Shown: positions 2 through 62,083 of the stretch, piece after piece
Layout: each line of letters begins with the position of its first letter
Numbering within the stretch: position 1 is the first letter of the stretch
Assembly: GCF_000969835.1 (NCBI RefSeq)
Contig: NZ_KQ033913.1
Location: forward strand, 622,859 to 686,858
Reading direction: 5' to 3'
DNA length: 64,000 nucleotides
DNA from: Parabacteroides goldsteinii DSM 19448 = WAL 12034
GTDB taxonomy: Bacteria > Bacteroidota > Bacteroidia > Bacteroidales > Tannerellaceae
The notes under the pieces: generated by a model
Seen by the model: the letters and a program-made list of their open reading frames with translations, nothing else
Database searches by the model: none
Told to the model about the DNA's origin: nothing
Translations under genes and position numbers: made by a program

Positions 2-112
2 AGCACCAACAGCACCCAGCTCAAGCAATCGCGTACCCTCACGTATGCCATTCCGCTGGTGGTGGGCGGCACGAGCGGCGGCGGTGGTGACGACCGTCCG
101 GAGATCGAGTAA
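2..112 (+). CDS. C-terminal end of an upstream protein (partial)
   Basis: An open frame enters from the left edge and stops at TAA 110-112, giving 36 residues. The tail contains a Gly-rich stretch (GGTSGGGGDD) and ends in PEIE. No family can be recognised from so short a piece. It lies upstream of, and in the same direction as, a surface-protein gene, from which it is separated by a 23-bp tandem repeat array. It may end another surface protein, but that is only a guess from position. Confidence 0.5.
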   Translation, partial: STNSTQLKQSRTLTYAIPLVVGGTSGGGGDDRPEIE

Positions 113-137: not shown

Positions 138-244
138 TTCGATGCTGTCGAACCGCCTGATTCGATGGCGTCGAAGCGTCCCTTTCGATGGCGTCGAACC
201 GACCGCTTCGATGGCATCGAACAAGCCGCTTCGATTTCACCCGA
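138..244. repeat. 23-bp tandem repeat array, each unit a 5-5-5 hairpin
   Basis: Units begin at 138, 161, 184, 207 and 230, exactly 23 bp apart. The first four contain TTCGA, five variable bases (TGCTG, TGGCG, TGGCG, TGGCA) and TCGAA, so each can form a 5-bp stem with a 5-base loop, followed by an 8-bp spacer. The fifth unit keeps only the left arm. The array fills most of the gap between the upstream stop (112) and the next gene start (296). The same architecture with other arm sequences recurs at 60678-60876. Confidence 0.85.
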
Positions 245-59548: not shown

Positions 59549-60646
59549 TTAGATGGTAGATTTGCTTTCCGGTTCTTCGTTGTCGATCAGTTTCTTCTTC
59601 CGGATGTTCGTGGCTACGGCATGGACGGCGATGCCGGCTGCTGTCGCGGCTCCCAAGGCAAGGCCAATCTGGTCGGCTGTCGCTTCGATGCCGAACCCGT
59701 GTACGTCGGGCATCCGTTTATAGAACGGGCTGTTGTCCCAGAAGTTTTCTTCGCTGCAACCGAGGCAGGGGTGCCCGCTCTGGATGGGGTAGCTCGTCCC
59801 TTCGTTCCATTTGATGATACCGCAGGAGTTGTAGGTGCTCGGTCCTTTGCATCCCACTTTGTAGAGGCAATACCCATGCTTGGCGTTCTCGTCGTCGAAG
59901 CTCTCCACGAAGAGGCCGGCATCGAAGTTGGCACGGCGGTAGCAGGTGTCGTGCACGCGGCGTGAATAGAACATCTGCGGACGTCCCAATCCGTCGAGTT
60001 GCGGCATACGCTCGAATGTCAACATATAGATGATTACACCTGCCATGACGTCGGCAATTGGCGGGCAGCCTTGTACGTTGATGATTGGTTTCCCTTTGAT
60101 GACCTTATGGATCGCTTTTGCCCCAGTCGGGTTGGGGTTGGCCGCCTGCACGCAACCGGCACATGCGCAGTTTCCCCAGGCGATGATGGCTTTGGCGCCT
60201 TCGGCAGCCTCGCGGGTGATTTGCAGGGCGCTTTTGCCGCCGACACAGCAATAACCTTCGTCTTTCGTCGGAATCGAACCTTCAATCATAAGCAGGTATT
60301 CACCTTTATATTTCTTCATGGTCTCTTCCTTGGCAGCTTCGGCCTGTTCGCCGGCGGCAGCCATCAGGGTTTCCGTATAATCAAGTGAGATTTTGTCGAG
60401 AAGCAGGGTCGCCACGATAGGGTGGGCGGCACGGATGAACGATTCCGTACAGCAGGTGCATTCTTGCAGGTGAAGCCAGATGACCGGCAGGCGCGGCTTG
60501 GTTTCGAGTGCGTTGACAACCTGGGCGACACCGGAGGCTTCCAATCCCATAAAGGCGGCCATGGTGGTACAGAATTTCAGGAAATCCCTTCGGGAGATGC
60601 CTTTCTGCCGGCATTCCTCGTAGACGGTTGGTCTTTTGTTATCCAT
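59549..60646 (-). CDS. hyaA: [NiFe]-hydrogenase small subunit with six-cysteine proximal site
   Basis: The 365-residue subunit carries three iron-sulfur clusters. A Tat signal (SRRDFLKFC, residues 18-26) and a C-terminal membrane helix (about 325-347) are present. Proximal-cluster Cys are C63, C66, C160 and C194. Extra Cys occur at C65 (CTCC) and C165 (GCVQAA), exactly where oxygen-tolerant enzymes such as E. coli Hyd-1 have Cys19 and Cys120, so a [4Fe-3S] proximal cluster is predicted. The medial cluster (C275, C294, C297, with Pro at 287) fits [3Fe-4S]. Distal ligands are H232, C235, C260 and C266. It is the first gene of the structural operon. Confidence 0.95.
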   Translation of the reverse strand: MDNKRPTVYEECRQKGISRRDFLKFCTTMAAFMGLEASGVAQVVNALETKPRLPVIWLHLQECTCCTESFIRAAHPIVATLLLDKISLDYTETLMAAAGEQAEAAKEETMKKYKGEYLLMIEGSIPTKDEGYCCVGGKSALQITREAAEGAKAIIAWGNCACAGCVQAANPNPTGAKAIHKVIKGKPIINVQGCPPIADVMAGVIIYMLTFERMPQLDGLGRPQMFYSRRVHDTCYRRANFDAGLFVESFDDENAKHGYCLYKVGCKGPSTYNSCGIIKWNEGTSYPIQSGHPCLGCSEENFWDNSPFYKRMPDVHGFGIEATADQIGLALGAATAAGIAVHAVATNIRKKKLIDNEEPESKSTI

Positions 60647-60677
60647 ATTTTCGTAATTTATTGGTTTCTTTGTTTTA

Positions 60678-60761
60678 TTACGGCAGTCGTAAGTGTTCGT
60701 TTACGGGTGTCGTAACTGCTCATTTACGGGTGTCGTAACTGCCCGTTTACGGATGCCGTAA
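60678..60761. repeat. 23-bp tandem array with TTACG/CGTAA hairpins
   Basis: Four 15-bp units start at 60678, 60701, 60724 and 60747. Each is TTACG, five bases (GCAGT, GGTGT, GGTGT, GATGC) and CGTAA, followed by an 8-bp spacer. The period is exactly 23 bp. The array lies just upstream of hyaA. Confidence 0.92.
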
Positions 60762-60792
60762 CAAATCGGCCTCCGTTTTCAGGTGCGAACTT

Positions 60793-60876
60793 ATCCGGGT
60801 GTCGGATACGGTAATATCCGGGTACCGGATACGAGAACATCCGAGTGTCGGATACGGGTACATCCGGGTACCGGAT
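60793..60876. repeat. 23-bp tandem array with ATCCG/CGGAT hairpins
   Basis: Four 15-bp units start at 60793, 60816, 60839 and 60862. Each is ATCCG, five bases (GGTGT, GGTAC, AGTGT, GGTAC) and CGGAT. The period is 23 bp, and the first unit is exactly two periods (46 bp) after the last unit of the neighbouring TTACG array. The array ends 15 bp from the hypE stop. Confidence 0.92.
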
Positions 60877-60890
60877 AAATCCGCCTCTTT

Positions 60891-61937
60891 TCAGCAGATA
60901 CGCGGCAGCTGTTCGCCGCTCAGCATATCGACTATCCGGTAGTTGCCGTAAAGTGTCCTCATCTTCACCACTGCGTTGCCTTTCTTTTCCACCCGTCCGA
61001 TGACGGTAGCCTTTTCTCCCTCCGGGAAACTGCGCATGACGGCCAGTGCTTCTTCCGCCAGTGCTTCGGGGAGGATGACCAGCACCAACCCTTCGTTGGC
61101 GACATACAGCGGGTCGAGTCCCAGTATCTCAGAAGCGCCTCTTACGGCATCGGGGATGGGGAGGGCCGCTTCATCCAGTATGATTTCAACGTTGGCCGCT
61201 TTCGCAATTTCGTTCAGTGTTCCGCTCACCCCGCCACGTGTCGGGTCGCGGAGCACATGGACTTCCTCTATATTTTTTAACAACCGGGAGAGCATATTGT
61301 TTAACGAAACGGTATCACTTTTCAGATTTGTTTCGAATCCGAGGCTTTCGCGGGCGGAAAGGATGGTGATGCCATGCGTTCCGATAGGACCGCTGCAAAT
61401 CACTGCGTCTCCGGGTTGCACGCGGTCGGGGGCGATACGGATGCCTTCGGCGACGACTCCGATGCCGCTGGTATTGATAAAGAGTTTGTCGCATTTGCCA
61501 CGTTCCACCACCTTGGTATCACCGGCGACAATCTGCACGCCGGCTTTGTCGGCCGCCTTCCTCATGGACTGCACGATGCGTTGCAGGTCGGCAAGCGGCA
61601 GGCCCTCTTCGAGTATGAACCCGGCAGTGAGGTAAAGCGGACGGGCACCGCAGCAGGCAAGGTCGTTCACCGTCCCGTTCACCGCCAGGTCGCCGATATC
61701 CCCTCCGGGAAAGAAAATCGGGTCGACCACGAAAGAGTCGGTCGAGCATGCCATGCGCCCTTCCTGAACGGGAAATACGCAGCCGTCGTGGTCCTGTTCC
61801 AGCAACGGGTTGCGGAAGGCGGGATAGAAGATGTTACTTATCAGTTGATGCGTCATCCTCCCGCCACCGCCATGCGCCATCAGCACACAGTCGGCATCGT
61901 TCAACGGTATCGGGCAGTTAAAATCTTCGTTCTTCAT
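60891..61937 (-). CDS. hypE: Hydrogenase expression/formation protein HypE
   Basis: HypE dehydrates a carbamoylated C-terminal Cys to a thiocyanate, the source of the CN ligands of the NiFe site. The protein ends PRIC, with the required terminal Cys. The ATP-binding start MAHGGGGRMTHQLI, DPIFFPGGDIGDLAVNGTVND and LRDPTRGGVSGTLNEIA are family hallmarks. I start at ATG 61937 (348 residues); the longer open frame to 62057 only reads through an inverted repeat. It works with HypF (divergent), HypC and HypD (upstream). Confidence 0.95.
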   Translation of the reverse strand: MKNEDFNCPIPLNDADCVLMAHGGGGRMTHQLISNIFYPAFRNPLLEQDHDGCVFPVQEGRMACSTDSFVVDPIFFPGGDIGDLAVNGTVNDLACCGARPLYLTAGFILEEGLPLADLQRIVQSMRKAADKAGVQIVAGDTKVVERGKCDKLFINTSGIGVVAEGIRIAPDRVQPGDAVICSGPIGTHGITILSARESLGFETNLKSDTVSLNNMLSRLLKNIEEVHVLRDPTRGGVSGTLNEIAKAANVEIILDEAALPIPDAVRGASEILGLDPLYVANEGLVLVILPEALAEEALAVMRSFPEGEKATVIGRVEKKGNAVVKMRTLYGNYRIVDMLSGEQLPRIC

Positions 61938-61950
61938 AATCATTATTATC

Positions 61951-62083
61951 ATATTTGAACTATTTTGTCCCCGTGCTTGACACGGGGCCGCAAAGGAGCA
62001 GGCTGTATCAAAAGATACATATAGGAAACGGTCTATGCCTCTGCGATCCCGTGTCAAGCACGGGAACGGGATAGTTCATATTT
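61951..62083. repeat. Imperfect inverted repeat element between hypD and hypE
   Basis: CCCGTGCTTGACACGGG (about 61969-61985) and its exact reverse complement CCCGTGTCAAGCACGGG (about 62048-62064) form a 17-bp perfect inverted pair. Outer TGAACTAT (61956-61963) and ATAGTTCA (62071-62078) are also inverted copies, and the inner flanks (CGCAAAGG, CCTCTGCG) are nearly so. The whole unit of about 130 bp resembles a small inverted-repeat element or a strong hairpin. The hypD stop codon lies inside its right end. Confidence 0.75.

What the first reader, a model, noticed from the sequence alone, without database searches (positions are those of the whole stretch)
60678..60876. Two adjacent hairpin arrays with different arms keep one 23-bp register
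Four TTACG-N5-CGTAA units (60678, 60701, 60724, 60747) are followed by four ATCCG-N5-CGGAT units (60793, 60816, 60839, 60862). Every step is 23 bp, and the step between arrays is 46 bp, exactly two periods. The intervening unit at 60770 shows only a weak CCT/AGG remnant. Both arms change together, so the 5-5-5 palindrome geometry and the 23-bp period are kept while the sequence is not. Simple slippage explains copies within an array but not the shared register and geometry between arrays. The arrays fill the gap between hypE and hyaA. They could form RNA hairpin chains that tune the ratio of maturation to structural genes, bind a protein every ~2.2 helical turns, or be a mobile repeat class with variable stems.
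Basis: seen in the sequence. Interest (0 to 1): 0.78.

Follow-up and report, generated by a model that had tools for sequence, protein, structure and literature searches.

The report
Palindrome arrays: fixed spacing, changing letters
Between two hydrogenase genes of a gut bacterium (Parabacteroides) sit short runs of mirror-image DNA repeats, and similar runs with nearly the same spacing but different letters lie between genes elsewhere in this genus, as if the shape were kept and the sequence rewritten.

Summary
The "remnant" unit at 60770 is not supported, and the shared register is a 1-in-23 coincidence. A third array (TTCGA arms, four units, 23 bp) lies at 138-221. The window is Parabacteroides (hyaA protein 97% identical to P. 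gordonii). The arrays belong to a genus-wide class: 44 arrays of period 21-24 bp fall into 30 sequence clusters; sampled relatives have almost none. In the same hypE-hyaA gap P. gordonii and a MAG carry arrays with other arms; six named species have none. A large subfamily (GTTTC arms) is strongly enriched between convergent genes; for the other arrays no placement bias is shown. The window arrays and nearly all GTTTC arrays are predicted to fold long-range, not as hairpin chains. In several orthologous GTTTC arrays loops are replaced or inverted while arms and period persist. I read them as REP/BIME-like palindromes whose arms are kept matched by template switching; any function is unproven (no strand bias; no T-tailed stem in the window arrays).

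The parts
60678..60761 (-). Array 1: four TTACG-N5-CGTAA units, 23-bp steps, equally CGTAA-N8-TTACG dyads joined by N5; 31 bp upstream of the hyaA start on the - strand
   Evidence: RNA fold z -4.8 sense, -3.5 antisense, but lower energy antisense
60762..60792 (.). 31-bp gap between the two arrays; the proposed remnant unit at 60770 has 1 of 5 pairs
60793..60876 (-). Array 2: four ATCCG-N5-CGGAT units, 23-bp steps, starting 14 bp after the hypE stop codon
   Evidence: RNA fold z -2.8 sense, -1.9 antisense
138..221 (+). Array 3, not in the finding: four TTCGA-N5-TCGAA units, 23-bp steps, 25 bp after the stop of an open frame that enters the window (2-112); folds as one long hairpin
   Evidence: z -5.7 sense, -3.2 antisense
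60891..61955 (-). hypE (AIRS domains), gene upstream of the arrays in transcription; ATG start assumed
59549..60646 (-). hyaA, NiFe hydrogenase small subunit, gene downstream of the arrays

Best explanation
The arrays are members of a Parabacteroides class of short intergenic palindromic arrays. A dyad unit (5-bp arms, most often 8 bp apart on one side) is repeated three to five times, four being commonest, at 21-24 bp, and the whole can fold long-range. Shown: the class, its period, the unrelated arms, and the presence of different arms or different loops at the same locus in different species. Inferred: arms stay complementary and alike within an array because replication template switching copies one arm onto its partner and can invert the segment between, while slippage keeps the period. 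Inferred with less confidence: selection keeps the fold rather than the letters, and the fold acts mildly at transcript ends much as REP/BIME elements do; only the GTTTC subfamily has a placement that speaks for this.
For: Detector: 29 arrays of period 22-24 in 1.66 Mb against 3 in five shuffles together. 44 arrays, 30 sequence clusters. Same hypE-hyaA gap, different arms in three species. GTTTC subfamily: 36 of 56 between convergent genes against 50 of 422 background gaps, 3 of 56 divergent against 98 of 422; in P. gordonii alone 14 of 21 convergent. Loops two units apart are reverse complements (at least 7 of 8) in 12 of 128 pairs against about 1% expected; in P. gordonii alone 6 of 37 against 1.9%, p 6e-5. 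Orthologous arrays show an inverted middle segment (L140/L197) and paired loop changes (L149/L209). In L195/L211 flanks are 97% identical while the array loops differ. 61 of 64 GTTTC arrays have a pair spanning over 40 bases in the predicted fold, mean z -6.2. Template switching is reported to homogenise inverted-repeat arms and invert spacers (PMC8604942, search listing; PMC8794818, passages).
Against: No sense/antisense folding bias (20 against 17, p 0.8). Arrays outside the GTTTC subfamily show no placement bias in the wider set: 17 co-directional, 6 convergent, 6 divergent, 1 without genes on both sides (convergent p 0.15, divergent p 1.0). Six named species lack the array in this gap. T-tailed terminators are not significantly rarer beside convergent GTTTC arrays (8 of 26 against 36 of 80, p 0.25), and 9 of those 26 arrays themselves score as terminator-like. 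One array lies behind an intact terminator. GTTTC arms are alike across loci and species, which neutral template switching alone would not predict. Not all orthologous arrays turn over: L167/L173 differ at 2 of 40 loop positions. Among TRF arrays, dyads were no commoner at period 21-24 (10 of 32) than at other periods (6 of 15). The tree allows three independent gains at hypE-hyaA.
Confidence: 0.4

Rival explanations
1. Mutational by-product without function: template switching and slippage create and keep palindromic tandem arrays, which are tolerated between genes.
For: Presence and absence between close species; 25 of 30 clusters hold one array only; no strand bias; no placement bias outside the GTTTC subfamily; no known RNA family in 60300-61300.
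Against: The narrow 22-24 bp period and recurring 8-bp arm spacing, the near restriction to one genus in the samples, and the convergent placement and constant arms of the GTTTC subfamily are not obvious neutral outcomes.
Confidence: 0.31
2. Protein-binding arrays: dimeric DNA-binding proteins read the dyads, spaced about two helical turns; each subfamily of arms has its own reader.
For: Period 22-24 bp; 8-bp arm spacing recurs with linkers of 3, 4, 5, 6 bp; GTTTC arms differ at 3 of 340 positions between orthologues against 71 of 272 loop positions.
Against: 30 clusters of unit sequence would need many readers; the GTTTC arrays compared were found by an exact arm pattern, which inflates arm constancy; position between convergent genes is unusual for operators (my knowledge).
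Confidence: 0.18
3. REP/RAYT elements proper: copies moved by a Y1 (REP-associated) tyrosine transposase.
For: Intergenic palindromes; GTTTC subfamily between convergent genes, as published for REPs (PMC3733652 passages); some units are inverted copies.
Against: PF01797 is found in only 8 of 38 genomes and not in G002, G003, G026 or G028, which carry many GTTTC pair matches; GTAG in 1 and CGTC in 2 of 44 unit consensuses; no shared consensus.
Confidence: 0.05
4. RNA hairpin chains that set the ratio of HypE to HyaA expression.
For: The arrays lie between the two genes in a likely operon; both strands fold better than shuffles on average.
Against: Predicted fold is nested and long-range; array absent from the gap in six named species; no sense bias over 37 arrays; same class between unrelated genes.
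Confidence: 0.06

Closest known systems
REP elements and BIMEs (repetitive extragenic palindromes)
   Same: Short intergenic palindromes, some units in opposite orientation; the GTTTC subfamily lies mostly between convergent genes, as REPs lie between unidirectional and convergent ORFs (PMC3733652, passages)
   Different: No common consensus (30 clusters among 44 arrays), no regular GTAG/CGTC head, no Y1 transposase in several array-rich genomes, tight 21-24 bp period, different arms or loops at the same locus
Quasipalindromes kept perfect by template switching
   Same: Matched arms, inverted loops, paired changes (PMC8794818, passages; PMC8604942, search listing)
   Different: The cases in the passages I saw are single hairpins; here several units share a fixed period
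Bidirectional intrinsic terminators
   Same: GTTTC subfamily between convergent genes, hairpin on both strands; 9 of 26 convergent GTTTC arrays score as terminator-like
   Different: No terminator-like site in the window arrays; T-rich tail on 11 of 44 arrays
Iteron-type repeats of about 22 bp (recalled)
   Same: Two-turn spacing
   Different: Letters differ from array to array; relation to origins not tested

Membership tests
REP/BIME | Extragenic palindrome | tested here: met
   of 22 arrays (period 22-24, score >=41) 20 intergenic, 2 called genic by crude ORF calls
REP/BIME | Common consensus in many copies per genome | tested here: not met
   ATCCG pair pattern in 1 of 38 Parabacteroides genomes; 30 clusters of 44 arrays. 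The GTTTC subfamily alone comes near it in some genomes
REP/BIME | GTAG or CGTC head motif | tested here: not met
   GTAG in 1, CGTC in 2 of 44 unit consensuses
REP/BIME | REP-associated Y1 transposase in the genome | tested here: not met
   8 of 38 genomes; absent in G002, G003, G026, G028, present once each in G001 and G040
REP/BIME | Between co-directional or convergent genes rather than divergent | tested here: inconclusive
   met for GTTTC arrays (3 of 56 divergent); not shown for the rest (6 of 29 divergent against 98 of 422 background)
Intrinsic terminator | Stem followed by a T-tract | tested here: not met
   none in window 60500-61000 or 1-400
Intrinsic terminator | RNA 3' ends map to the stem | not testable with these tools
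   needs Term-seq
Structured RNA under selection | Sense strand folds better than antisense | tested here: not met
   20 better, 17 worse, p 0.8
Structured RNA of a known family | Rfam match | tested here: not met
   no match at E<=1 in 60300-61300; array 3 not searched
Template-switch quasipalindrome | Loop inversions and paired changes between orthologues | tested here: met
   L140/L197, L149/L209; few cases, inspected by eye

The most novel reading that the evidence does not exclude
A class of chromosomal element whose identity is pure geometry: dyad symmetry at a period of about two helical turns, about four units, one long-range fold. Its letters are free and are rewritten as a set, arms included, at the same place in sister species. 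Selection and template switching together would then keep a shape without keeping a sequence, and whatever reads it reads shape.
Probability: 0.27. Interest if true: 0.82.

Novelty: new variant of a known kind. Interest (0 to 1): 0.58.

Why it matters
Searches for repeats and regulatory elements rest on conserved letters; a class kept by geometry would be missed by them and by covariance models trained on one family. If the arms are indeed rewritten together, these arrays are natural, comparable records of template switching in a gut commensal, and they bear on how long hairpins arise and stay perfect. The GTTTC subfamily would also be a candidate transcript-end element.

Tried and rejected
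Rejected or not supported: the remnant unit at 60770; chain of small hairpins; sense-strand selection (null result); a placement bias for arrays outside the GTTTC subfamily (null result; the smaller census had none divergent of 20, so the two sets disagree); substitution for intrinsic terminators as a rule (not significant, although at L206 relatives have a T-tailed hairpin where G002 has the array); RAYT mobility; Rfam family; plasmid carriage (no match). Viral contigs hold 4, 1 and 2 stretches with pair matches for GTTTC, ATCCG and TTACG; my detector reports no array of period 21-24 and score 40 in them. Spacer complementarity in GTTTC arrays hardly exceeds its null. A first tree held a wrongly cut row (L051) and was replaced, in which the two forks that separate carriers from non-carriers have only moderate support (88/92, 84/87). 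The dyad test on Tandem Repeats Finder consensuses was weak: 10 of 32 arrays of period 21-24 at p<0.05, 6 of 15 at other periods, and the two hypE-hyaA arrays did not pass; it did show that 29 of 47 tandem arrays of period 15-45 in the sampled Parabacteroides DNA have period 22 or 23. A flank search for L201 found nothing.

Literature: searched the held library. Searches returned no paper; in the listed rows of the others I saw no description of this class. I read passages only of PMC12306157, PMC3733652, PMC8794818, PMC2817692 and PMC5771137; PMC2267715 held none of my terms; PMC8604942 was seen in the listing only.

Biases to know: the GTTTC arrays compared between species were found by an exact arm pattern, so arm constancy (3 of 340) is inflated, and three of the nine pairs share arrays. 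Orthologous arrays count apart in the 64. Gene contexts rest on a crude ORF caller, and the background gaps (90-600 bp) are from P. gordonii and G040 only; with gaps held to 600 bp and a stricter rule 26 GTTTC arrays count as convergent. Of 64 GTTTC arrays 8 lacked a gene on one side and were dropped. Of the 20 stretches from other Parabacteroides one (G015:C10) was known to hold a GTTTC array. 9 of the 11 arrays with 4+8 spacing are GTTTC arrays. The status of G002 arrays in G040 is known only in part; one further pair (G002:C18, G040:C7) has identical loops, flanks unchecked.

Full report
What is there. Twenty block-shuffles of the window gave no array of three or more units at that geometry. 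A third array with TTCGA arms, also four units at 23 bp, lies at 138-221, 25 bp after the stop of an open frame that enters the window. The gap unit at 60770 has one pair in five and is not a remnant; that the two arrays share a phase has a chance of about 1 in 23. The genes are a NiFe hydrogenase cluster: small subunit, large subunit, cytochrome b, protease, HypD and an AIRS-domain protein taken as HypE.

Which organism. No genome is held for the window. The small subunit is 97% identical to those of P. gordonii, P. faecis and P. goldsteinii, and the DNA is 84% identical to P. gordonii over 6081 columns, so this is a Parabacteroides that the scanned set does not seem to hold.

The same gap elsewhere. 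P. gordonii has four units with TGACG/CGTCA arms (one mismatch) plus an extra half arm, the first arm overlapping the hypE stop codon (my reading; detector call). A Parabacteroides MAG (L004) has three CTCCG units and one TTGCG unit. P. faecis, P. goldsteinii, P. distasonis, P. chinchillae, P. acidifaciens and P. bouchesdurhonensis have short gaps without an array, as has the MAG L006, and so by eye have the unnamed G040, G010 and G022. In L009, L010 and L014 another sequence lies before hyaA, so they say nothing about this gap. A tree of the flanking genes puts the three carriers among non-carriers with moderate support; one gain and two losses, or three gains, cost the same. Carriers share a few bases behind the array that non-carriers lack (by eye), weakly favouring one old array whose arms were rewritten.

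A genus-wide class. A detector asking for three units with dyad arms and arms alike between units found 29 arrays of period 22-24 in 1.66 Mb (1.2 Mb of P. gordonii, 0.4 Mb of G040, the window), against 3 in five shuffles together and 10 in a mirror-repeat control on the real sequence. With a stricter cut 44 arrays of period 21-24 fall into 30 clusters of unit sequence, with 3 units in 13, 4 in 18, 5 in 10 and more in 3. The arms are often 8 bp apart on one side while the other spacing grows with the period: 3+8 in 1 of 3 arrays at 21 bp, 4+8 in 11 of 19 at 22 bp (9 of them GTTTC), 5+8 in 9 of 19 (4 ties) at 23 bp, 6+8 in 1 of 3 at 24 bp. Some arms recur at low copy number: TTCGA in the window and P. 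gordonii, ATCCG in the window and one P. gordonii locus.

A large subfamily. GTTTC-N8-GAAAC-N4 pairs occur in 17 of 38 Parabacteroides genomes, with 47 pair matches in P. gordonii and none for the reversed control, and in 3 of 149 genomes sampled from the order, two of them Parabacteroides. Of 56 arrays with genes called on both sides, 36 lie between convergent genes, 17 between co-directional and 3 between divergent genes; the background gaps are 50, 274 and 98. In P. gordonii alone it is 14, 5 and 2 of 21.

Placement of the rest. In the census of P. gordonii and G040 (period 22-24, GTTTC included) 14 arrays are co-directional, 6 convergent, 0 divergent and 2 genic, and 15 of 26 stop-codon distances are 5-30 bp. 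In a wider set with a second context rule and GTTTC left out it is 17, 6 and 6, with 1 lacking a gene on one side, which does not differ from background. In the GTTTC set 30 of 89 stop distances are 2-29 bp. So the placement after and between gene ends is firm for GTTTC only; the arrays of the window do lie close behind stop codons (14 and 25 bp).

Fold. The window arrays fold nested and long-range rather than as a chain; 61 of 64 GTTTC arrays have a pair spanning more than 40 bases, mean z -6.2; the P. gordonii hypE-hyaA array folds less well, in two parts (z -2.4), the L004 one well (z -5.1). Alternating equal arms always allow such nesting, so the fold alone is weak evidence; the complementarity of loops is additional. 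GTTTC loops two units apart are reverse complements in 12 of 128 pairs (null about 1%), against 4 of 192 at distance one; in P. gordonii alone 6 of 37 (null 1.9%, p 6e-5). All three window arrays have a lower z-score on the sense strand, yet array 1 has the lower energy on the antisense strand, and over 37 co-directional arrays there is no bias (20 better, 17 worse). I take this as no evidence for selection at the RNA level.

Change through time. Flank matching gave orthologous GTTTC pairs. In L195/L211 (flanks 97% identical) and L203/L212 (96%) arms, period and place are kept while loops, spacers and nearest flank differ. In L140/L197 the middle unit with its spacers is inverted. In L149/L209 loops 1 and 3 changed together and still match. 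In L148/L202 change is almost confined to one loop, and L167/L173 hardly changed. Over nine pairs arms differ at 3 of 340 positions, loops at 71 of 272 and spacers at 21 of 100; arm constancy is inflated because arrays were found by an arm pattern. Other arrays are present or absent: one in G040 is missing at the matching place in P. gordonii, and two of G002 are missing in G040, P. gordonii and G003, one of them sitting behind an intact terminator in G002.

Reading. Matched arms, inverted loops and paired changes are what template switching between inverted-repeat arms is reported to leave (PMC8794818, passages; PMC8604942, listing). The palindromic, partly inverted units and the place of the GTTTC subfamily resemble REP/BIME elements (PMC3733652, passages), but the class fails three REP features tested here: common consensus, head motif and Y1 transposase. 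It may work like a REP/BIME; it is not shown to be one. Whether selection keeps the shape, and for what, is open. Inside the hydrogenase cluster a strong terminator would be costly, and there is no T-tailed stem, so if the arrays act there, a mild effect on the 3' end of the hyp transcript is likelier than termination (inference).

Noticed in passing
window 138-221: Third array of the class, TTCGA arms, four units at 23 bp, with the strongest fold z-score of the three.
   Followed up: yes
L205 around 1000; L255, L256, L257: GTTTC array in G002 directly behind an intact T-tailed terminator; no array in three relatives.
   Followed up: partly
L206 around 1000; L260-L262: Relatives have a T-tailed hairpin where G002 has a GTTTC array.
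   Followed up: partly
L030 about 2438-2600 and the matching G040 gap: 22-bp array with AACTT-GAAG-AAGTT units kept at the same place in two species but longer in P. gordonii.
   Followed up: no
G099 (handle only): The one genome among the 149 sampled from the order, besides two Parabacteroides, that holds GTTTC pairs (32 matches); its identity is unknown.
   Followed up: no
GTTTC arrays: The arm letters resemble the half-sites of the ParB site parS (recalled, not tested), but with 8 instead of 4 bases between.
   Followed up: no
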